A stretch of DNA of 64,000 nt from Hyaloperonospora brassicae (Eukaryota > Oomycota > Peronosporomycetes > Peronosporales > Peronosporaceae), in contig CANTFL010000173.1 in the NCBI GenBank assembly GCA_947650285.1, positions 181,202 through 245,201 on the forward strand, given 5' to 3'. Positions 6,842-27,559 of this stretch are shown piece by piece (the first letter of the stretch is position 1; the number at the start of each line of letters is the position of its first letter). Below the pieces are notes generated by a model that did no database searches, had not been told where the DNA came from, and saw nothing but the letters and a program-made list of their open reading frames with translations. The position numbers were made by a program, and so were the translations under genes.

Positions 6842-8997
6842 AGCTTACTTGACGATGTACGAAAAGCATACGCGGAAGATAAGGATCTTCTGCGATTGAT
6901 GGATCATCTGTTGAATTCATCCAGTAAATCATTGAAAGACTTACCGGGTTTGTACCGATCCTCCTCGGATCGGTACACAACGCGTAACGGACTGTTATGT
7001 AACAGTTGTTGACGTCGACACGCCTCGTGTCGTCGTACCCGCTCATCATGATTTGCGTTTATGCATCATGTATGAGTGTCACGATGCCTCAACAGGTGGC
7101 TATCGTGGTAGAGAAAAAACTTACCTCACGGTAAGTCGTGACTTTTACTGGCCACGCCAGTATCAGTTTGTCCGCAAGTACATACGTGCTTGCGAGGTTT
7201 GTCAACGGGTGAAGCCTCGTCCTTCCTCCCGTGCACCATTGCAACCTCTACCGGTCCCGTCGGAGTGCTGGCAGTCCGTTCCAATGGACTTCGTCTTCGA
7301 TTTTCCCGAAGACGCTCACAAGAATAATGGTATTCTTGTGTTTGTCGACCGATTCAGCAAGATGGTCCATCTTTCTGCCGTACCCGAGTCCATCCCACAC
7401 TTGGCTGTGCTCGTGTCTTTCTTGACACGATCTCCCAACTCCACGGCTTGCCCCGTGAACTCGTATCCGACCGTGACCCTCGGTTCACGGCGGAATTTTG
7501 GCAATCCGTGTTCCGTTCTCTCGGAACACGATTGACGATGTCCACTTCTGACCATCCCGAAACAGATGGTCAGACGGAACGTGCGAACCGTGTCCTCGAA
7601 GAGATCCTTCGAGGATATGTCCTCTCGTTTTCGAGTTAGAGCGAATTCCTACCCATGGTGGAATTCGCCATCAATAATTCGGTGCATGCTTCCACACAGC
7701 ACACACCGTTTCACGTGAATGTCTTACGCCATTCACGTGTGCCCGCCCTTCTAGAGTGTGATTCTTGGGTAAGGGGGGAGGGACTCGCTCGAGCAAAAAC
7801 CGTTTTGGCTCTTGCTCATCACGTGTCGACGCTAACGTCGTCACGTATGATGCCGATGTCGATCAAGTCGACATCGATGAAGAAGGTCACCTCAATAATA
7901 GCGGCGACGCTATTACTGACTCGGATGATGATGACGATGCTGGTATATTCAGCATCGTCAACGATTATGCCAGCGAGGGAGAAGACAACCTCGCTGAAGA
8001 AGAGAGCAATCTCTTAGCAGTGCGCACGAAGCGCACTGAAAGACGAAACAAAGAGTCAGCAGAGAACTTCCTGCTGACTCGAGAAGCGGTAGTCCGTTTC
8101 GTTCAGGACGCCATCGCAAATGCGGTGGTCTGTCAGAAACGGAACGCAGACAAGAATGGAAGAGCAAATGTTCTTTCATTTAAGGTCGACGACCTAATAC
8201 TGCTGTCTACGGTAAACTTACCTGGACATACAGTCACTAGTGTCGGCAGTAGTAAACTACTGCCGAAGTACATTGGGTCATTTCGAGTGTTGAATCGCAA
8301 GGGCAATGCATACACACTCGAATTGCCACGTAAGATGCGCACGCATCCTACGTTTTACGTGGGGAGGCTCAGGCCGTACTGTCAGTACGAGCCTTCTTCT
8401 TCCGATGAAGATAGACCCCACGTTCAAGAACATCCATCAAGTTCTTGCGTTCGCGCTCCAGACGATCCGTCTGGTTGCGCAGATATGATACCTCGGAACT
8501 CAACCGAGATATCTCCCCGCGAGCTGTCGCCAGCTCGCCGAATAGGGAGCGGACATCCCGCTCGATCTGAAGCTGCGCTGTGGCATAATCGGTGCGATCC
8601 TTCGCCCGATCAGCCTCGTGATTCTTGCGGTTCTTCCGCGTGGTATCAGTCAAAGCGTAGCGCCGGTCGCGCTCGTGCTTTAAGTCATCGCGCAATTCAT
8701 CGATTGCGCGATCCATCTCGTAAGGGTCGAGATGGTGAACTGAATCATCTGGAGGAGGTCTTTCCTCCTCCACCACATCATTTGGTGGATGCTCACGGTG
8801 ATCAACGCTTCCTAGTGGCACCGGTTGGCGTTCGCTTTTCGAACCTGAGGCGTGTCGCCTCAAGTTTTTTAAGCCAACCTTCTCGTCCAAAATCCTTGAC
8901 ATTTTGGACGAAGGCGTTCCACGCAGCCAAAAGCGAGGCCTTGTCACACTTTTGGTTGCCGTTGTACCATCGATGTCTAAGGAAGACATCGAGATAA
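6842..8997 (+). pseudogene. Gypsy A1 integrase, fragmented
   Basis: Integrase in several frames: zinc-binding end with CEVCQRVK near 7190-7215, core with DFVFDF and VFVDRFSKM, SDRDPRFTAEF near 7465 and TDGQTERANRVLEEIL near 7565, which together carry the D,D,E triad. ORFs 7053-7535, 7448-7639 and 7765-8997 are offset by indels. A stop follows FSS near 7637. After the core comes an Asp/Glu-rich stretch (about 7830-8030), then a C-terminal domain (VDDLILLSTVNLP, YVGRLRPYCQYE). The tail includes EEVFPPPPHHLVDAHGDQ, which resembles the start of a chromodomain, but the rest of a chromodomain is not there. The last 630 bases overlap the antisense ORF. Confidence 0.82.
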
Positions 8998-9581
8998 AAT
9001 TCTTCCTCAGCGCGAAAGTTACTCGCGCTGAGATCCAAGCCGTGAAGCTCAGTCGCATCGAATAGGGGTATTCGATGGTGTTGGCTTGTCTTGTGATACT
9101 ATCCATTGATGAGCCGTTCAGGCAAACTCCACGGCTTCAGCTCATCACGCTTCACAGTGGTACCCTTATCGGTACCACGGTTGTCAGTATGACGTTGGCT
9201 TGCACCATCGTCAAGTCGCTCGTGCGAAGGAGCACGAGCTGATCGCGGTGATGAGCAATCATACTCATCATCAGACTCATCATCACTGCCGAACAGACTG
9301 TGACGCATGTCACGAGTCCGTACGTCCGGCAGTGTCGTGGATAAATGAGGCACCGCAGGTGAACGCGATGCCTCCAAAGGCTTTTCCGAATCAGACACGT
9401 CTGACCCGCCAGAATAGATGACCTCTATGTCAGGGTCATCATGCGCACGCGGTGTGATACCGCGTGCACCTGCAGCACCTGTTGCTGCAGGCGGAGAACG
9501 AGCAGCAGACGACGAATCGTCTGCCGCAGAGGCTGGCACAGCAGCGGGCTGTGCGTGTGTTGAGTCATTCCGCATAGACAT
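8369..9581 (-). pseudogene. Antisense ORF of Gypsy A1 (acidic, coiled-coil protein)
   Basis: Minus-strand coding region at the 3' end of A1, convergent with pol. The conserved start is the ATG at 9579-9581 (MSMRNDS). An Ala/Ser and Asp/Glu-rich N-terminal part runs to SLPERLING and an in-frame TAG near 9099. The same frame continues through a compact block (SNFRAEEEFYLDVFLRHRW, FVQNVKDFGREGWLKKLEA) to TGA near 8802. A different frame then carries a strongly heptad-like, Arg/Glu-rich coiled coil (ERDVRSLFGELATARGEISR, RLERERKNLMDVLERG) ending at 8369. The matching region of A3 has no stop at the TAG position. I know no family for it. It could be a captured host gene or an element-encoded accessory protein. 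Confidence 0.6.
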
Positions 9582-9699
9582 GTTAACTATGCGAGGTAGG
9601 GTGGAAAGTGAATGGAACGGACCCAACAAGTGCTCCCTGTCCCAATGGTGCCCAACGGGTGGCCGCCATTATTTTCGATAGTCACACGATGACTATCAG

Positions 9700-15120: not shown

Positions 15121-15293
15121 CAAGTCTTCAGTGCGCACCAGGTGGTGCTACCATCGTCAAACCTGCCGAAGAGATTGCGGTCTGTTTCTGAGCCTATATG
15201 GGAGAAAAGCGCAAGATTTATCACCACGATTTGAAAGCCCCCTGTCCAATGAAAATGTCCCGTCATCGGACTGGTCTGCGAGCTGCACCTTCC

Positions 15294-15309
15294 GTTCTCT
15301 TTTCAATTT
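15294..15309 (+). promoter_or_regulatory. Inr-like core promoter of the broken effector gene
   Basis: GTTCTCTTTTCAATTT resembles the oomycete Inr consensus (GCTCATTYYNCAWTTT) and is followed by CTCTTTCA. It lies about 35 bases before the ATG at 15342, so the upstream in-frame ATG at 15198 would be outside the transcript. The intact copy has the same element at 62519-62534. Confidence 0.6.
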
Positions 15310-15699
15310 GCTCTTTCACCCCAAGACAAACGCACTCGACGATGCGCGCCCGCCGCTTCGTACTTGTGACTTGCACTGCGACTTTGACAGGCAGTACGAG
15401 CGCTATAGAGCCATCCAGCCCTACAATGACGAAGATTGAACCCGAGGCCGTCATTCGTTCCGCGCACGCCGACCACAATGGCGTCGCTTTCAAGAAACCG
15501 CAAGAGCTACACAACCACGAGGCTGGCAAAGAAAGGATGGGACTTGCGGTATATAACGACGAAGCGATAGAAGCGACAACACATGAGCTTGTAAACGCAT
15601 TCTTCAGAAGTCTTCAAGCCAAGGCCGGACCCTCTACAGAGACTAAGTCAGTGGCGTCCTTCAAAGATGAGCTCGGTCACTATATTGCGATAGAATTTG

Positions 15700-16176
15700 T
15701 GTAGCGGAGCTACACAGCTCCTTAAGTCAGAGGAAGACTTAACGCTCTTACGAGCAACTTTGGTTCTACGAACCCGACTCAGAGAGTCAACAAGCTCAGA
15801 GAGCTTACGGTCCCCGTTCCTAAGGGACCAAACGATTCAAAAGAATCACAGGACATAGTGCTCAGGAGTAGCTACCTTCACAGGTATTGCTAGCTCCTAT
15901 CGATCAAAGACGCCTCGTAAGGCACGTGTCTCTTACTGATCAAAAGGGGAACTGAATTTTTATTTCTTTGATTAACCTAAAAGAACACCTTAGAACAACG
16001 TATTTAACCTGCCCTAAATAACCTCTTAAAAGATCTCGCAATCAATTGATGACAGACATCAGTCTTCAACAATTGATACACTCAATGTGTTCTAAAATTA
16101 CTTTATAGGGTAACCCTCCTCTCTTGTGTGCACCACACCTATCGTCGACTACCAGCCGACGTGTAACCCCGTTACA
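15700..16176 (-). repeat. 3' LTR of element B
   Basis: 477 bp on the plus strand from TGTAGCGGAGCTACACAG to CCCCGTTACA. The left end is a small palindrome (TGTAGC-GGA-GCTACA). Relative to pol it is the downstream LTR. Target duplication ATTTG at 15695-15699. Confidence 0.93.
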
Positions 16177-16190
16177 CCCTCCCCCACCAG
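16177..16190 (-). other. Polypurine tract of element B
   Basis: On the minus strand this is a G-rich purine run (GGTGGGGGAGGG) ending at the 3' LTR, as expected for second-strand priming. Confidence 0.7.
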
Positions 16191-16284
16191 ACTGACGCTA
16201 CCACCAAACGTCAATCGGCTTCTTTCCTCGAAGAGGTCGGTGTGTGTGTGTGCTTAACCTCGCGGTTCCTAAACTCGAAACACC

Positions 16285-17586
16285 ATGGCTTTGCCACCCA
16301 ATGAAACTCGGACTCTTCCCTCTTACCTCGACTTCAATGAGGATGTGGACTATGGTAGTGATACCAGTGTCCATGGAGATGACGGGATATCATCCCACTC
16401 CGCTGTACCTGAAGCTCGTCCTCTTACAGCATCGAATCCGTTCGTTGAACGTAGTGATATCACCGCGCCAGTGGCGCAGCATCATACAACAAATGCAGAT
16501 GAGAACATCATCACGAACCCGCTAGATGAGCAACAGCAGCTGATCCGTCAGCGTGAGGAGCGTGCTCTACGTCGCACTCATACCCAGGCGGTTATTCGAA
16601 ACCAAAGTGGTTACGTGTTCTCAACACCAGACGTGGAGCAACGCCTCCGTCAAACGGAAGGCCGTAGCCTTGCAACATGGGCCATTGGCCCCGAGGCTAC
16701 GTCGCCAGAAGATATAGCCTTTCGCCAGGCTCTAAATGAGAGGTATCTCGAACCAGCCTATACCACGCAAGGTCAGTACCTTGCACACCTTGAGAGTCTT
16801 TCTCGTGGTGTTTCGGTTCGACCGATAAAGGGCGTGCCCATCTTGTTGTTCGCTGGCGAACAGCCCGAGGAGGAGGACAATGAGTTCATCCGTTGGGTGT
16901 ACCGCAAGCGGCATCTTAGCAGTTTGCCAACGCTGCGGGCCAGCGCCGATGTGGCTGACGTTCGTCTGGAACGGAAGATGCGGTGTGAGTATGCCAAGCT
17001 CAAGGCCAGAGGCCAGTTGCATACACGTACGCGTTATGCTCCGGCTACAATGGTAGCCACGGGTCACGACACTAAGGTGCGAAGCAACACGCCACCTCCC
17101 ACCACTATTGGTGAGAAGCGTTATCGCTCGCAAGGCGACCCTGGCCACGATGTTCAAATACATCCACGGCGTAAGGGCAGTCCTGCCGAAGGGGTATCTC
17201 ATGCTCCCACGAGTTCTCTGACTCCGGGTACCCTCGCCACTTCACCGGATACTGGTATTGGCCACAACGACGACGTCGCTGAAGGAGTCGCTCCACATGG
17301 AACTGGTGGTTCCCTTACTCATCGAGCAGCGTCGGTGGCGGTCGGGGTACCGAAGGAAGAGCATGAGAAGGTGATCCGTGAGCTGAGTGGTCTCCGAGAG
17401 ACATTGGGTAAGACCCAGAATGAACCCGGCGCGATGCAAGCCCGTGTTCAGGCGTTGGAGTTGGCCTTAGCCCGTGTGGATGGTCAGCTTGACCTCCTGG
17501 TTCGGATGCAACAGTCGACGTCAAGGCCTTATTTCCAGGCGCAAGCGCCTCCGAGTTCACATGGGACGGGTCCCGATACGGGTTAA
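16285..17586 (+). CDS. Antisense ORF of element B, 433-residue coiled-coil protein
   Basis: A single uninterrupted ORF on the strand opposite to pol, starting at an ATG in good context (ACCATGG) about 108 bases inside the 3' LTR. The N-terminal 100 residues are acidic and Ser/Pro-rich. A block at about 130-250 (SLATWAIGPEATSPEDIAFR ... RLERKMRCEYAKLKARGQ) looks folded. A Pro/Gly-rich linker follows, then a coiled coil at about 357-410 (EEHEKVIRELSGLRETLG, MQARVQALELALARVDGQLD). It overlaps the integrase end, linker and chromodomain on the other strand. No known family recognised. While gag and pol are broken, this ORF is intact over 1.3 kb, which argues for selection or recent function. Family A has a similar ORF in the same place. 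Confidence 0.7.
   Translation: MALPPNETRTLPSYLDFNEDVDYGSDTSVHGDDGISSHSAVPEARPLTASNPFVERSDITAPVAQHHTTNADENIITNPLDEQQQLIRQREERALRRTHTQAVIRNQSGYVFSTPDVEQRLRQTEGRSLATWAIGPEATSPEDIAFRQALNERYLEPAYTTQGQYLAHLESLSRGVSVRPIKGVPILLFAGEQPEEEDNEFIRWVYRKRHLSSLPTLRASADVADVRLERKMRCEYAKLKARGQLHTRTRYAPATMVATGHDTKVRSNTPPPTTIGEKRYRSQGDPGHDVQIHPRRKGSPAEGVSHAPTSSLTPGTLATSPDTGIGHNDDVAEGVAPHGTGGSLTHRAASVAVGVPKEEHEKVIRELSGLRETLGKTQNEPGAMQARVQALELALARVDGQLDLLVRMQQSTSRPYFQAQAPPSSHGTGPDTG
17105..17296 (-). CDS. Chromodomain of element B pol
   Basis: ERLLQRRRRCGQYQYPVKWRGYPESENSWEHE in two pieces: ERLLQRRRRCGQYQYPVKWR and GYPESENSWEHE match the core chromodomain pattern (YxVKWRGYPxxxxSWE). This identifies B as a chromovirus, whose integrase tail binds modified histones or related marks. 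It is in another frame from the preceding integrase ORF (17315-17818), so it is probably not made as part of Pol in this copy. The plus-strand ORF runs across it. Confidence 0.8.
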   Translation of the reverse strand: MERLLQRRRRCGQYQYPVKWRGYPESENSWEHEIPLRQDCPYAVDVFEHRGQGRLASDNASHQ

Positions 17587-19355
17587 GCAAGCCAACGTAT
17601 AACACTGAAGGCGTGCGCAGTTTGCGCGGAAAGTTGAGCGTGTACGCCAATCCCTTCTTAGCGATGACCGTGAACGGCCCAATGAAGGTTTTTAGCATTG
17701 AGTAGAACTTGGTCTCCGACCTTATAACGTTCAATATATCCTCTGCCTTTAACATCAGCTTGCTCCTTTTGTCTACCTTGGCTATCAGCCAGTGCATCAC
17801 GCACGTGTCGTAACACATTCAAGCGCGTTGCGAGAAACTCGATTACCTGTTTATGAACAGTAGCAGGGCTGATATCTGCAATCCGATCGGCCATCTCTCC
17901 CCCACCAAGCCCTGAACCACGCAGTGGTAGCGTTAACGGAACGCGAGGGTGTGTGAGACCGTTCACGTAGAACGGAGTAAAGCCTGTAAAGGCATGAACA
18001 GCGTTGTTCAACGCAAACTCAACAACAGGGAGCATCGAACTCCAACGTTTCGGTGTATTAGCGCAAACACTGCGCAATATGTCACCGATAACGCGGTTGA
18101 ATCGCTCGGTTTGATCATCTGTCTGCGGATGATCCGTTGTGGACACGTCCAAACGTGTGCCGAGCACCTTGAAGATGGACTTCCAAAACTTCCCAGTGAA
18201 GCGAGGGTCTAGGTCAGAGACAATTGCCACAGGCAAGCCGTGTTGTCGAAACACTCGATCGATAAACAGCGTAGCTGTACCTTCACCATCAAAGGTATCT
18301 GGCACAGCCGCCAAGTGAGCCATCTTGCTCAAACGGTCAACAAAGACCACAATACCCGTATTGCCTTGCCCATCTTTCGGCAGACCGAACATGAAATCCA
18401 TGCTGATGCACTCCCAGCACCCAGAGGGTATAGGGAGACTAGCGAGCGGCGCAGCCGCATGAGCTGAGGGTTTCACCCGTTGACACGTTTCGCACGTACG
18501 CACATATGTGCTTACCCATTTGTAAAGTTTGGGCCACCAATAATATTGGCTCACGGCGCTATATGTCTTTTCTCGACCGAGATGACCGCTCACCGCAGTA
18601 TCATGCGCCTCATAGAGGATGCGATACTTCAATTCCTCATCATGATGGACAACGATACGGGGAGTATTCTCCATATCTGTGCTATAGCACAACAGGCCTT
18701 GATCGATGGAATATCGATGTAGCCTCGCACGCAATCGTGCCGAAAATTTAATGTCTGAGTCGTTAAATTCCTCGCTCCCCAGAGCACGTAGCAAAGCTAC
18801 ACAATGTTCATCTTTGGCATATGCCGAACGAATGAAGTCTGTGACCGATGATGACAGAGTCGTAACATGAGCAAGCTCATAGTCAGGCCTGCGTGACAAC
18901 GCATCATCCAGAGAATTCTGCTTGCCCGGCTTATACTTCACCTCGAAGTTGTATTCCGCAAAGAATGAGAGCCAACGGGCCATTCGCTGAGAGAGATGTG
19001 GCGACTGGGTCGCAGTGCGTAATGACGCATGATCTGTAAAGATCACAAAAGGCTTAGAGCTAAACAGATGAACTCTGAATTTAACTAAAGCATACTCCAT
19101 TGCAAGTAGCTCTTTGTCATGAACAGGATAGTTCTTTTCTGCGGCCTTCAGCTGTCGGGACTCAAACGCAATGATGCGTTCCCGTCCATCATTATCTGTT
19201 TGTAACAGAGCACTGCCGATGACAAAGTCAGATGCGTCACAGACGACACTGAAAGGCCGATCAGGATCGGGCAAAGCCAAGATTGGCGCATGAAGTAGGC
19301 TCTCTTTTACAGCCGTAAAGGCTTCCTGCTCGGTGTTCGTCCAACACCATTCCAC
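17315..19355 (-). pseudogene. Element B RNase H and integrase, frameshifted
   Basis: ORF 17658-19355 (565 residues) starts in the RT-RNase H connection (EWCWTNTEQEAFTAVKES), then RNase H (DRPFSVVCDASDF, DKELLAMEYAL, FVIFTDHASLR, LDDALSRRP). Integrase follows with an HHCC end (HDTAVSGHLGREKT ... CETCQRVK) and core (ISMDFMFGLP, SDLDPRFTGKFW, TDDQTERFNRVIGDIL: D, D, E present). Near 17690 the frame changes and the C-terminal domain continues in 17315-17818 (IGPFTVIAKKG, YVGLLNPYRDPS). The linker that follows is Ser/Pro-rich and lies opposite the antisense coiled coil. Confidence 0.87.
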
Positions 19356-20524
19356 ATCCTTTTAAGGAGATTGGATAATGGTCGAGCCATGTCTGCATAG
19401 TTTGCACTATTCTTGTGTAAGTAATAGGCAAGACCAAGCCACTTACGCAAGTCCTTCTGGTTCTGAGGAACCGGCCAATCGACTATGGCTTTTATCTTAG
19501 CGGGATCCGGTCAAAGACCACGCTTCCCGAAGAAGCACCCTAAAAAGGGAATCTCTTGTGTACCAAAGATGCACTTAGAGGCGTTGGCATACAACTTGTT
19601 TGTGCGCATGCACTCGAGCACTGCTCGTAAATGGTCGATGTGACTATCCACATCAGACCGGCCGTTCATAGCACGACTATGGACAAAGATGTCATCAAAG
19701 TAGGTCTGTGCATAACCTCGTTGAGGACGAAACAGTTGCGTCACAAGACGATTGAACGTAGCTAGCGCGTTTGACAAGCCCTGTGGCATAACTAGCCACT
19801 CCCAGAGCACACCGCTCGGGGTACTTACTGCTGTGAGCGGAATATCTTTCTCACGCATGAGTAATTGGTAATAACCATCGACTAAATCGGGTGCACTGTA
19901 CATCGTACATCCCACCATATTGTTCTGAAGAACATCTTTCCGAGGGATTGTTGTCTGAGCCGGGATCGTGGCAGCATTAAGCTTATAGTAAGCATGAACA
20001 ATGCGCCACTTTCCATTGGGCTTTCGAACACAAAATGTGGGCGTGGAATGAGGAGATTTGCTCTCACGAACCATGCCCGCTGCGTGCTTTGCACGTAAGA
20101 AGTCGTCAATGACGTCGCACTGTTCCTTCGGTAAAGGCCACTGCCGTGTTACGCAGTATTTAGTTCCAGGAACCAAGTCAATTTCATGACGTACACCTCT
20201 ATCGGGAGGTAAGCCGGACGGTGGGTTGTGACACACCACGTCCTGAAACTCCTTTACCAAAGGATAGAACGGATCAAGAGAATCCTTAAGGATCGAAGAT
20301 CCACTACGGGCATTTAATGCCGCCTTTGTGTCCTCAAGGACAGGCTCGTCCAATAACGAGGATGAGTTCAACTCAATATCTGGTCGAATGACCACTAACT
20401 CGGATAATTCTCCTGCCTGTAAGGCTTGGCTAAATTCGCCGTCAGACATTTCGTCTAGTTCAAAGAGAGTGTCCATAGGTGGAAGAGTCTCAAGACTAAT
20501 ATTGCCATCGAGCTGGCCAGTCAA
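19356..20524 (-). pseudogene. Element B reverse transcriptase, with stop and frameshift
   Basis: RT motifs: PLPKEQCDVID, TPTFCVRKPNGKWRIVHAYY, LVDGYYQLLMREKDI, LVMPQGLSNALATFNR and catalytic YFDDIFVHS with YFDD at 19691-19702. The frame ends at TGA 19511-19513 where the family continues (after GKRGL), then resumes and is broken again near 19360 by a one-base frame change within a run of A/T. RT and RNase H would therefore not be made as one chain. Confidence 0.88.
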
Positions 20525-21585
20525 CCCATTAAAAGTGTATATATTGTGTAATTACTATTATCACTTCGTGACTTCTTATACGTTGGGCGCTTCACAGTGG
20601 CCACCTTACGCTGGAATCGTTTCCTCACAGAAACCGTACGCCTCCTAGAGGCCGGGACAGTCGGGTCCCCGTGATTGCTATTTGTCTTAGCACGCTCTAG
20701 ACGAGAGCTCATGTCTTGAACTACATCTGGTGAAGTGTTACGTAACTTAAACACTTCACCCAGTGGATTTACATGGACCACTTCACGTACAGCATTCGGG
20801 CCTAGCCCTGAACACTCTGGCTTCTCGCCATTAATGTCATTACCGACATTCAGTGAGGTGCCATCACGGCCGTCCTCACTCTGTGTATTTTCACGTGCCA
20901 CCGCACTTACATCAGAGGAATTACATTCTTGATGTTTCGTCCCTGGGTCAACCATGCTTGACGCATGCAGTGACTCATTATCACAACGAGTATCACTCAA
21001 CGTAGTACAACTCTCTTTAAACATATTAGAAGAGCTCCGCTCAACATTCATTTCATGTACATTCGAGTTAATCAACTCCGACATACCAATGTCCAGCACA
21101 TTGACATCTTCCGTCAATGGCTCGCGCCAATAGCGCTTTTGTTGTCTAGCAAAGGTGGGTTCATGACTCTCCAAAACTCCACTAGGAACATTGCGCGTTG
21201 CGCCTAAGGTCTTAGACCTCCAATCGATCCATGGTTCATGGCGTTCAAGCCATGCCATGCCTAGGATGAGATCGTATCTCGAATCCAAGTCCAGGACGAG
21301 ACAGCGTTCTGTGCTACCAAAGTCCAAAAACCTCACGCCCAAGCTCAATGGAACTTTAGGCACAGTAACGCGACTACCCGTCGCTAACCGAACAGTGATG
21401 GAATTACCATCGTGCGCTTTGAGCGCCTCAGCATATTGCTGACTCCCCTCAAGGGAACGGCGTCTAGCATAGTTGCATGACGCCCCAGAATCGATTAATA
21501 TCGACCAGTGCTTCTCAAAGCCTTTAGCTATCGCCTTAGCGACTAACAAGCCAGGCTTGTATCCACGCTCTGTGCTTGCTGGCAC
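20521..21585 (-). CDS. Element B aspartic protease and linker
   Basis: A 354-residue ORF. The active site is LIDSGASCNYARRRSLEG (DSGA) about residues 31-48, and the second conserved region is YDLILGMAWLERH about residues 105-118. A Ser/Asn-rich linker leads towards RT. This ORF overlaps the RT ORF by four bases (20521-20524) in another frame, so it may have needed frameshifting or re-initiation, or an indel has split a single pol ORF. Confidence 0.8.
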   Translation of the reverse strand: MPASTERGYKPGLLVAKAIAKGFEKHWSILIDSGASCNYARRRSLEGSQQYAEALKAHDGNSITVRLATGSRVTVPKVPLSLGVRFLDFGSTERCLVLDLDSRYDLILGMAWLERHEPWIDWRSKTLGATRNVPSGVLESHEPTFARQQKRYWREPLTEDVNVLDIGMSELINSNVHEMNVERSSSNMFKESCTTLSDTRCDNESLHASSMVDPGTKHQECNSSDVSAVARENTQSEDGRDGTSLNVGNDINGEKPECSGLGPNAVREVVHVNPLGEVFKLRNTSPDVVQDMSSRLERAKTNSNHGDPTVPASRRRTVSVRKRFQRKVATVKRPTYKKSRSDNSNYTIYTLLMG

Positions 21586-21671: not shown

Positions 21672-22712
21672 CTACTGGGTGTCGACGTTTCCCCGTGCCA
21701 TACCAAGTTTCTGGTTGAGGCTGGGGTTTCGACCCGTAGGAGTCGTTCGTTGCTTACGCAAAGGACAAGTGGGACGTAGATGTTTAGTGCTTCCGCACAT
21801 GTAACAGCGTCTCACCTCCTGTCGTTGCTCGGCAACATGAAGCTCAGCTTCACCTTCATCTTGAGCGTTGCTGAGATCCATCGGTTCGGGCTTACAGTAA
21901 GCTGAGCTACTTGCTGAGGTTGCCCTCGCATAGCTTGGGTTGTACCCATTCCAACCAAGTCTGGCTGACTTAAAGTTATGCTCAGCATTCTGAGCGATGC
22001 TCACAGCCTCCTGAAAAGTCGAGGGATGGACTTAAAAGACCTCGGTCCTGGCAATGCCAGTGCGAAGACCTTCCATGAAGACTGTCACGTAGACGGTCTC
22101 AGGGAGAGGGTCGGACTGCATGGCAGCCATCAGAGTTCTCAACTCCTGGACATAGTCCGTTAACTCGTTCTTACCCTGACGGGTAGACAAGAAGCTTGAG
22201 TGCACGCGATATGCCTGGTAAGGCGGCGAGAAAACTCAAAAAAGGTCCAGCTTAAGCGAATCCCACGTGGGAAACGCCAAGTTGACCGACGTGCCACACG
22301 TCAAAGCCTACTCTCTCGCTCTACCATCGAGCTTAGAGATAGCCAACGAGACCCGCTGGTTCTCAAGTGAGATGAGACCAGAGTCCATGGCCATCTCAAT
22401 CTCACGGATCCAGAGGGTAAGGTTTTCCCCCTCCTTCCCGGAGTAACATTTAACGTCCACCCGAAAAGGACGAGGCTTAGCCTCTTCTGGTGGCATAGCC
22501 ACATAGCGTGTCGGCATAGCCGACGCTACTTGGTTTTGAACCTGGCCCAACAGGGCCGTTTCATACTGCATAAAGGCCTCGACTCGTGCGTTGAGCACAT
22601 CGGGACCTTGTGCAGCGAGAAACTCCACGTACTCAGGGCCTACGGCCGCGGTCAGCTTATCAAGCGCGACCTTTTGGGCCTCAAAGAGGGGTGTGGATTG
22701 CACCATCCTCAC
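21672..22712 (-). pseudogene. Element B gag, frameshifted
   Basis: N-terminal gag is 22308-22712 (MRMVQSTPLFEAQ... with the capsid-like stretch YSGKEGENLTLWIREIEMAM and LDGRARE). The middle, about 22005-22307, lies in other frames. The C-terminal part is 21672-22004 and holds an intact zinc knuckle CYMCGSTKHLRPTC (CX2CX4HX4C) that would bind RNA. Frame changes near 22310 and 22010 prevent one full-length Gag. Confidence 0.82.
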
Positions 22713-22764: not shown

Positions 22765-23241
22765 TGTAGCGGAGCTACACAGCTCCTTAAGTCAGAGGAA
22801 GACTTAACGCTCTTACGAGCAACTTTGGTTCTACGAACCCGACTCAGAGAGTCAACAAGCTCAGAGAGCTTACGGTCCCCGTTCCTAAGGGACCAAACGA
22901 TTCAAAAGAATCACAGGACATAGTGCTCAGGAGTAGCTACCTTCACAGGTATTGCTAGCTCCTATCGATCAAAGACGCCTCGTAAGGCACGTGTCTCTTA
23001 CTGATCAAAAGGGGAACTGAATTTTTATTTCTTTGATTAACCTAAAAGAACACCTTAGAACAACGTATTTAACCTGCCCTAAATAACCTCTTAAAAGATC
23101 TCGCAATCAATTGATGACAGACATCAGTCTTCAACAATTGATACACTCACTGTGTTCTAAAATTACTTTATAGGGTAACCCCCCTCTCTTGTGTGCACCA
23201 CACCTATCGTCGACTACCAGCCGACGTGTAACCCTGTTACA
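22765..23241 (-). repeat. 5' LTR of element B
   Basis: 477 bp, nearly identical to 15700-16176. It ends CCTGTTACA where the other ends CCCGTTACA. The target duplication ATTTG follows at 23242-23246. Confidence 0.93.
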
Positions 23242-23881
23242 ATTTGAGGACACTGATAAAGGACGCGCTCATCTAGCCGATATGTATGCGAGGCGAGATC
23301 CGAATGAACTAGCACATTTGCTTAAAGTGGTCCACGGAGTATACCGCGCGCATCAGGAAGAAACGGCGTTGGCGGAAATTATGGAGGAAATGCAACGATT
23401 CGACACGCATCCTCTCGCGGTCCTCAGGATGATCATTCCCATTTATAAGGACGTTGGTAACTCCGAGAGACCTTCGGCGGACATAGTTTTCGAGCAACTG
23501 AAGGAGTACATCAAGATGTACAACGCGAAAAGACCAGACGAACCACCCATCGCGATGCTTCTGACGTTATTTGAGGGCTTTGGTAATTTGGCGAGACTCA
23601 AATCTTTTTTGTCGGACGTGAAGCCCAACCCCAACTATGCTCAAGAAGTCAATCGTATGGAACAGTTGCTGGCTGAGTTCCAGATGAGACTTGTCAACAT
23701 GTTCGATGCTCTTGCTCTTGAGGTGGGGATCGCACCACAGGGACAGCGTTTCTTAGCAAACCACAACATGGAGTCATTCATGACATACATCTGGAGAATC
23801 ATTAATTTACTTCCTCCGGGCCGTCAGAATATCTTCGCGGAACTAAAGGTGATGTCGGAGGCAAATCCGGCTGCCATTTGA

Positions 23882-26228: not shown

Positions 26229-26346
26229 CTGATAGTCATCGTGTGACTATCGAAAATAATGGCGGCCACCCGTTGGGCACCATTGGGACAGGGAGCACTT
26301 GTTGGGTCCGTTCCATTCACTTTCCACCCTACCTCGCATAGTTAAC

Positions 26347-27559
26347 ATGTCTATGCGGAATGACTCAACACACGCACAGCCCGCTGCTGTGCCAGCCTCT
26401 GCGGCAGACGATTCGTCGTCTGCTGCTCGTTCTCCGCCTGCAGCAACAGGTGCTGCAGGTGCACGCGGTATCACACCGCGTGCGCATGATGACCCTGACA
26501 TAGAGGTCATCTATTCTGGCGGGTCAGACGTGTCTGATTCGGAAAAGCCTTTGGAGGCATCGCGTTCACCTGCGGTGCCTCATTTATCCACGACACTACC
26601 GGACGTACGGACTCGTGACATGCGTCACAGTCTGTTCGGCAGTGATGATGAGTCTGATGATGAGCATGATTGCTCATCACCGCGATCAGCTCGTGCTCCT
26701 TCGCACGAGCGACTTGACGATGGTGCAAGCCAACGTCATACTGACAACCGTGGTACCGATAAGGGTACCACTTTGAAGCGTGATGAGCTGAAGCCGTGGA
26801 GTTTGCCTGAACGGCTCATCAATGGATAGTATCACAAGACAAGCCAACACCATCGAATACCCCTATTCGATGCGACTGAGCTTCACGGCTTGGATCTCAG
26901 CGCGAGTAACTTTCGCGCTGAGGAAGAATTTTATCTCGATGTCTTCCTTAGACATCGATGGTACAACGGCAACCAAAAGTGTGACAAGGCCTCGCTTTTG
27001 GCTGCGTGGAACGCCTTCGTCCAAAATGTCAAGGATTTTGGACGAGAAGGTTGGCTTAAAAAACTTGAGGCGACACGCCTCAGGTTCGAAAAGCGAACGC
27101 CAACCGGTGCCACTAGGAAGCGTTGATCACCGTGAGCATCCACCAAATGATGTGGTGGAGGAGGAAAGACCTCCTCCAGATGATTCGGTTCACCATCTCG
27201 ACCCTTACGAGATGGATCGCGCAATCGATGAATTGCGCGATGACTTAAAGCACGAGCGCGACCGGCGCTACGCTTTGACTGATACCGTGCGGAAGAACGG
27301 AAAGGATCACGAGGCTGATCGGGCGAAGGATCGCACCGATTATGCCACAGCGCAGCTTCAGATCGAGCGGGATGTCCGCTCCCTATTCGGCGAGCTGGCG
27401 ACAGCTCGCGGGGAGATATCTCGGTTGAGTTCCGAGGTATCATATCTGCGCAACCAGACGGATCGTCTGGAGCGCGAACGCAAGAACTTGATGGATGTTC
27501 TTGAACGTGGGGTCTATCTTCATCGGAAGAAGAAGGCTCGTACTGACAGTACGGCCTGA
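26347..27559 (+). pseudogene. Antisense ORF of Gypsy A2
   Basis: Same gene as in A1, here on the plus strand. It starts at ATG 26347 and has the in-frame TAG at 26827-26829. The frame reopens through 26890-27126 (SNFRAEEEFYLDVFLRHRWY), stops at TGA, and the coiled-coil part (to 27559) is in another frame. A2 and A1 share both breaks. The stretch GTTCCATTCACTTTCC at 26309-26324, just upstream of the ATG, loosely resembles an oomycete Inr element. If it is real, the ORF could have its own promoter in the element. Confidence 0.6.

What the first reader, a model, noticed from the sequence alone, without database searches (positions are those of the whole stretch)
16285..17586. Intact antisense gene in a chromovirus, opposite integrase tail and chromodomain
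Element B has a 433-codon ORF on the strand opposite to pol, intact although gag and pol in the same copy are broken. It has its own ATG in good context and a C-terminal coiled coil. Antisense ORFs are known in some plant Gypsy lineages, but I know of none described for oomycete chromoviruses. It could be a captured host gene, a regulator of the element or a packaging factor.
Basis: partly seen in the sequence, partly recalled or inferred. Interest (0 to 1): 0.78.

Follow-up and report, generated by a model that had tools for sequence, protein, structure and literature searches.

The report
Antisense gene overlapping a retrotransposon's chromodomain
A jumping element in a downy mildew carries a real extra gene on its opposite DNA strand, and part of that gene is written over the coding sequence of the element's own integrase tail, with both readings kept by natural selection.

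Summary
Confirmed and extended. The 433-codon ORF (16285-17586, +) is a genuine antisense protein gene of a chromovirus family. Less damaged copies in the same genome show that pol ends at 17105-17107, so the two genes overlap tail to tail by 482 nt: the antisense N-terminal part lies beyond pol, its C-terminal part opposite the integrase linker and chromodomain. Between families B and B2 antisense dN/dS is 0.21 outside the overlap (other frames 1.30-1.55, one mirrored frame 0.34). In the overlap both frames are constrained (antisense omega 0.51, 95% 0.33-0.77; same pseudo-frame upstream in integrase 2.08). Homologues occur in Hyaloperonospora, Peronospora, Phytophthora and Albugo; 72 of 106 still fit a chromodomain in the same opposite frame, so the overlap is old. 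The model shows a confident globular domain and a coiled coil; the chromodomain lies opposite a disordered linker, the coiled coil opposite pol's low-complexity linker. A second chromovirus family in the window also has an antisense gene there (532-535 aa where intact, 629-nt overlap, same phase) without detectable homology. Best reading: an element-encoded accessory, probably regulatory, protein, like plant aORF-3R or retroviral HBZ in position. Transcription and function are not shown.

The parts
16285..17586 (+). antisense gene, 433 codons
   Evidence: purifying selection; homologues
16285..16503 (+). predicted disordered N-terminal part (residues 1-73)
   Evidence: pLDDT < 50; net charge -5 to -10 in the 5 of 8 homologues where the stretch could be placed
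16612..17019 (+). confident globular domain, residues ~110-245; no fold match found
17029..17346 (+). predicted disordered linker of the antisense protein (residues 249-354), opposite the chromodomain
   Evidence: decoding
17353..17517 (+). coiled-coil helix of the antisense protein (residues 357-411), opposite pol's low-complexity linker
17105..17586 (.). 482-nt tail-to-tail overlap of the two genes; pol stop codon at 17105-17107 (-)
   Evidence: omega below 1 on both strands
17150..17302 (-). chromodomain of pol (Pfam PF00385 found in copies L002 and L042, coordinates carried over from L002); in the window copy it is cut off by an in-frame stop at 17315-17317
17315..17818 (-). pol fragment: SH3_Tf2-1 (below Pfam cut-off in this copy) and low-complexity linker
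17658..19355 (-). pol fragment: RNase H and integrase
19511..20524 (-). pol fragment: reverse transcriptase
20521..21585 (-). pol fragment: aspartic protease-like (RVP_2, just below cut-off)
22308..22712 (-). gag remnant by position (no Pfam gag match)
15700..16176 (-). LTR beside the antisense gene (3' LTR of the sense element)
22765..23241 (-). LTR beside gag (5' LTR of the sense element)
16177..16284 (+). polypurine tract of the sense element (inferred from CCCTCCCCCACC next to the LTR) and antisense leader
   Evidence: last 100 nt before ATG 89% identical between families B and B2
26299..27559 (+). family A copy: broken antisense gene, now two ORFs 26299-26829 and 26822-27559
8369..9629 (-). 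family A second copy: same broken antisense gene (9099-9629 and 8369-9106)

Best explanation
The ORF is an accessory gene of an oomycete Ty3/Gypsy chromovirus, on the strand opposite to gag-pol, starting 108 nt inside the 3' LTR and converging on pol. SHOWN by sequence: it codes for protein under purifying selection; 482 nt are dual-coding, so the same DNA gives pol's linker plus chromodomain on one strand and the antisense protein's linker plus coiled coil on the other; the arrangement is kept in downy mildews, Phytophthora and Albugo. INFERRED: it is transcribed from a promoter in the U3 part of the 3' LTR or the leader; the protein has an acidic tail, a globular domain and a self-associating coiled coil; it works as a trans-acting accessory factor of the element, most likely on its transcription, silencing or nuclear steps, as proposed for plant aORF-3R proteins and shown for HBZ. 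The converging transcripts would also form double-stranded RNA over the overlap, so the antisense gene may dampen pol in cis.
For: dN/dS between B (9 copies) and B2 (4), 36 pairs: 0.21 (range 0.16-0.26) in the 265 codons outside the overlap; other frames 1.30-1.55, and 0.34 in the mirrored frame that shares the wobble base. Overlap, 40 pairs: antisense omega 0.43 (0.28-0.64), 0.51 (0.33-0.77) stratified by transition/transversion; pol 0.44 / 0.50; the same pseudo-frame in adjacent integrase 1.60 (1.14-2.44) / 2.08 (1.49-3.09). An open antisense frame over the overlap has probability about 0.011 given the pol protein. 82 homologous proteins in the first search, among them Hyaloperonospora, Peronospora, Albugo and Phytophthora ramorum; further Phytophthora species. 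72 of 106 fit the chromodomain in the same opposite frame with z > 8; in the window ORF and 15 chosen homologues 51-63 of 65 residues fit, 0 of 500 shuffles as good. Several copies have the antisense ORF and, as far as the locus reaches, pol open (L002, L003, L042, L043, L047, L050). 50 of the first 60 of 110 integrase matches have the antisense gene beside them. Model: globular domain plus coiled coil. A second antisense gene in family A with the same layout and phase.
Against: No transcript or protein evidence was available. Copies with a long open pol frame are not significantly more often stop-free in the antisense frame (11 of 13 against 22 of 37, Fisher P = 0.17). A basic NLS-like cluster is present in only 45 of the 74 homologues (of 130) where the segment could be located, and is weak in the window copy, so a nuclear site is not established. 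No known fold or family points to a function. The first 480 nt of the integrase control alone give 1.06 (0.61-2.23), not above 1. Among B copies alone the contrast is weaker (0.41, range 0.32-0.74, outside the overlap; 0.68, 0.40-1.26, inside). The copies used for B-B2 were chosen among those with an open antisense frame, a mild bias towards low values; not all have an open pol frame (L024 and L029 do not).
Confidence: 0.62

Rival explanations
1. Chance open frame, or a shadow of chromodomain conservation, without a product.
For: The conserved stretch of the homologues around LAEGVPQTPMSS..GTLATSPDTG is opposite the chromodomain and is at least partly its shadow.
Against: About 270 codons lie outside sense coding and have dN/dS 0.21 over the 265 tested; in the overlap, changes silent in the antisense frame are favoured, the opposite of the control; many homologues align over the whole length.
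Confidence: 0.02
2. Captured host gene kept as cargo.
For: Antisense orientation and lack of a known TE domain.
Against: Most homologues tested decode to a chromodomain opposite, so they are element copies (72 of 106); the named hits are uncharacterised, hypothetical or unnamed oomycete proteins, one with an SH3_Tf2-1 domain.
Confidence: 0.05
3. Structural or packaging factor, or a factor of the integration complex, rather than a regulator.
For: Coiled coil and a globular domain of about 140 residues.
Against: No capsid or nucleocapsid similarity seen; its mRNA would run opposite to the packaged RNA (inference).
Confidence: 0.17
4. Counter-silencing protein that protects the element from host RNA silencing or chromatin silencing.
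For: Tail-to-tail transcription would make double-stranded RNA; small RNAs of both orientations from Gypsy elements are reported in Phytophthora infestans (passages of PMC3522703). The antisense-only module differs far more between families than LTR and integrase, which would fit an arms race.
Against: No similarity to a known silencing suppressor was seen in the Pfam and PDB searches; untested.
Confidence: 0.16

Closest known systems
Antisense additional ORFs between pol and 3' LTR (aORF-3R) of plant Ty3/Gypsy elements (Grande gene23, RIRE2, Retand, PvRetro13) and of Boty of Botrytis
   Same: Antisense to gag-pol, beside the 3' LTR, present in most copies, conserved between species, function unknown; gene23 is nuclear with its own promoter (PMC7264820, parts 1-2 of 3 read; PMC11963269, passages).
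   Different: Retand is a non-chromovirus lineage with a pol-3' LTR region of 2.9-6.6 kb, mostly with the TRP28 domain; the main text of PMC11963269 has no occurrence of 'overlap'. Here the gene overlaps pol by 482 nt on the chromodomain, with an unrelated protein family.
HTLV-1 HBZ / APH proteins and HIV-1 ASP
   Same: Antisense gene read from the 3' LTR side; HBZ has an N-terminal activation part and a C-terminal bZIP (passages of PMC10186651), similar in outline to acidic tail plus coiled coil.
   Different: No bZIP match; retroviruses; antisense promoter shown there, not here.
Chronos and other oomycete chromodomain LTR elements
   Same: Oomycete Ty3/Gypsy elements with a chromodomain (PMC5348765, passages).
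   Different: Chronos has an extra plant-type RNase H, not seen in our Pfam scan of the pol pieces; the paper's main text has no occurrence of 'antisense'.

Membership tests
chromovirus (Ty3/Gypsy with chromodomain) | protease, RT, RNase H, integrase in Gypsy order between LTRs | tested here: met
   RVP_2 (just below cut-off), RVT_1, RT_RNaseH, Integrase_H2C2 in order on the minus strand; LTRs
chromovirus (Ty3/Gypsy with chromodomain) | chromodomain at the C end of integrase | tested here: met
   PF00385 E 7e-13 and 3e-13 in two other copies (2 of 2 tested); cut off by a stop in the window copy
chromovirus (Ty3/Gypsy with chromodomain) | RT falls inside the chromovirus clade | not tested
   no RT tree was made
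[quoted passage not shown]
   50 of 60 integrase places; it also runs into pol
Retand-type aORF-3R | TRP28 (PF04195) domain | tested here: not met
   no match at E <= 0.01 in 50 members; so not a Retand-type protein
aORF-3R (antisense additional ORF) | antisense transcript from its own promoter | not testable with these tools
   no expression data
HBZ-type retroviral antisense gene | bZIP domain homology | tested here: not met
   no bZIP family among the matches
HBZ-type retroviral antisense gene | antisense promoter in the 3' LTR, nuclear protein | not testable with these tools
   position fits; no expression or localisation data
Chronos (oomycete) | additional plant/archaeal-type RNase H | tested here: inconclusive
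   Pfam scan of the broken pol pieces shows only RT_RNaseH families

The most novel reading that the evidence does not exclude
Oomycete chromoviruses as a group carry antisense, dual-coded accessory genes: at least two families have unrelated proteins that use the same DNA, the same opposite phase and the same folding rule (disordered opposite the chromodomain, coiled coil opposite pol's linker), and these act as HBZ-like trans-acting regulators or counter-silencers of the element.
Probability: 0.35. Interest if true: 0.9.

Novelty: new variant of a known kind. Interest (0 to 1): 0.78.

Why it matters
Long opposite-strand coding overlaps with selection measured on both strands are, to my knowledge, rarely documented in transposons (recalled, not searched exhaustively). 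Here one is found in a high-copy element (162 antisense places pooled from three capped searches) and in several oomycete genera, with an analogous, apparently unrelated case beside it. That gives a natural data set for asking how two proteins share one stretch of DNA (structured opposite disordered), and makes the old question of what antisense retrotransposon genes do testable. It also says that many 'uncharacterised' or 'hypothetical' proteins of downy mildew and Phytophthora annotations are this transposon gene.

Tried and rejected

Rows dropped: of 62 loci 55 are distinct; B-B2 dN/dS used 13 of these, the overlap test 13 (an earlier version with 15 gave 0.39, 0.24-0.61), chosen for open antisense frames. 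Family A: 14 loci fetched, 13 aligned, 4 intact plus 2 window copies used. Decoding: 34 of 106 proteins did not reach z > 8; six of these had z 4.9-7.3; many look like truncated or gapped gene models, which I did not check one by one. The 24 proteins found later (P0107-P0130) were not decoded. Integrase adjacency: 60 of 110 listed matches used, lists capped by the tool.

Full report
WHAT IS THERE. The ORF exists as described: 16285-17586 on the plus strand, ATG start, 433 codons, in a context with A at -3 and G at +4. It lies inside a Ty3/Gypsy element whose gag and pol are on the minus strand. LTRs are 15700-16176 and 22765-23241, with 3 differences in 477 nt and a 5-bp target-site duplication ATTTG, so this is a young insertion. 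In this copy pol is in several pieces, one break being 50 nt that 28 of the 29 other copies in the alignment have (L027 ends before it).

COPIES. The tool calls the genome G000 (100.6 Mb, 898 contigs). One contig length (1,744,689) equals that of a contig bearing a Hyaloperonospora brassicae protein, so the host is very likely that species. A protein search listed 97 matches (of 1536 first-look candidates), 37 of them without a stop by my count. In the 30 best-scoring copies the antisense frame has 0-2 stops and the other five frames 5-28. A second family, B2 (about 63% protein and 77% DNA identity), was found with P0059 as query.

WHERE POL ENDS. In less damaged copies pol reads through SH3, a low-complexity linker and a chromodomain to a stop that corresponds to window 17105-17107; Pfam confirms the chromodomain in the two copies tested. 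The genes therefore overlap tail to tail by 482 nt in both B and B2. L002, L003, L042, L043, L047 and L050 have a stop-free antisense ORF and pol open to the edge of the locus, 657-658 codons. In the window copy an in-frame stop at 17315-17317 lies just before the chromodomain.

SELECTION. Outside the overlap (265 codons) antisense dN/dS between B and B2 is 0.21 (0.16-0.26 over 36 pairs). The other frames give 1.30-1.55, except the mirrored frame that shares the wobble base (0.34). Among B copies alone it is 0.41 (0.32-0.74). Inside the overlap ordinary dN/dS is confounded, so I classed each change as silent or not on each strand. Antisense omega (NN/SN, 40 pairs) is 0.43 (0.28-0.64), or 0.51 (0.33-0.77) after stratifying transitions and transversions; pol omega is 0.44 (0.29-0.70) or 0.50 (0.32-0.83). 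The same pseudo-frame in the integrase just upstream, where no antisense gene exists, gives 1.60 (1.14-2.44) or 2.08 (1.49-3.09); its first 480 nt alone give 1.06 (0.61-2.23), the next 480 nt 1.82 (1.08-3.40). By parts, antisense omega is 0.37 in the chromodomain part and 0.40 in the linker part, pol omega 0.23 and 0.62. Both genes are therefore constrained in the same DNA. Given the pol protein, an open antisense frame there has probability about 0.011.

HOW OLD. Named homologues come from Hyaloperonospora, Peronospora, Albugo laibachii and Phytophthora ramorum, and from further Phytophthora species. From an antisense protein one can compute which residues the opposite strand may encode. In the window ORF and 15 chosen homologues 51-63 of 65 chromodomain residues fit in the one expected frame, z 14.7-23.8, 0 of 500 shuffles as good. 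In the other two frames nothing comparable is seen; the highest is z 3.0 for P0066. Over 106 proteins 72 exceed z 8, among them proteins of P. ramorum, sojae, cactorum, idaei, fragariaefolia and citrophthora; the P. rubi and P. palmivora proteins are weaker or negative. The Albugo evidence rests on one protein, P0071. So the overlap itself is conserved from Phytophthora to Albugo. The unrooted tree does not decide between descent and horizontal transfer for Albugo.

WHAT THE PROTEIN LOOKS LIKE. The model (mean pLDDT 63.9, pTM 0.37) has a disordered N end, a confident globular domain around residues 110-245, a disordered stretch 249-354 and a long helix 357-411; the domain alone gives pLDDT 84.1, pTM 0.66. 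The chromodomain lies opposite the disordered stretch, and pol's low-complexity linker lies opposite the helix: each strand is relaxed where the other is structured. No family or fold match was found.

A SECOND CASE. The window holds two copies of another chromovirus family (A). Both have antisense ORFs at the same place, broken into two. Elsewhere in the genome this gene is a single ORF of 532-535 aa in four loci examined; it overlaps pol by 629 nt in the same phase, again with a run of coiled-coil type opposite pol's linker and a chromodomain at pol's end, seen by eye in the translation, not scanned with Pfam. Antisense-only pN/pS among these four copies is 0.42, against 1.98 and 1.06 in the two other plus-strand frames; the overlap test has few changes and is inconclusive. 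The A and B proteins show no detectable homology. Either the protein was replaced, or it diverged beyond recognition, or two families acquired such genes separately.

MODULE HISTORY. Between B (L002) and B2 (L043, L050) the LTR and most of the leader (550 to 50 nt before the ATG) are about 91% and 86% identical (my sums). By 100-nt windows the antisense-only part is 59-80% identical, the overlap 81-92% and integrase 83-96%. The jump sits at the pol stop. The antisense-only part thus looks older or exchanged between families; I have not tested recombination formally.

MECHANISM. Shown: a selected protein gene and a dual-coding overlap. Inferred: antisense promoter in U3 or leader, coiled-coil self-association, trans action on the element's expression, silencing or nuclear steps. 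The parallel with plant aORF-3R genes (PMC7264820, parts 1-2 of 3 read; PMC11963269, passages) and HBZ (PMC10186651, passages) is one of position and outline, not of homology. Nothing here shows a transcript.

Noticed in passing
window 8369-9629 (-) and 26299-27559 (+): Two copies of another chromovirus family carry a broken antisense gene; intact 532-535-aa versions exist elsewhere (L070, L071, L072, L074).
   Followed up: partly
window 15198-15704 and 23189-23881: The insertion appears to interrupt a plus-strand ORF; an internal stretch of the left part looks like the hydrophobic start of a secreted protein (by eye only; possibly effector-like). The flanks were not joined.
   Followed up: no
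L034, and B against B2 profile: Signs of mosaic elements: L034 is B-like in the antisense gene but its pol linker resembles B2; the antisense-only module is far more diverged than LTR and integrase.
   Followed up: partly
P0005 and L050: A Peronospora destructor protein sits at almost zero distance from own-genome B2 copies in the tree: horizontal transfer, contamination or very close families.
   Followed up: no
P0106: A Phytophthora cactorum protein joins the antisense N part to the sense integrase SH3 tail in one frame: a rearranged copy or a gene-model artefact.
   Followed up: no
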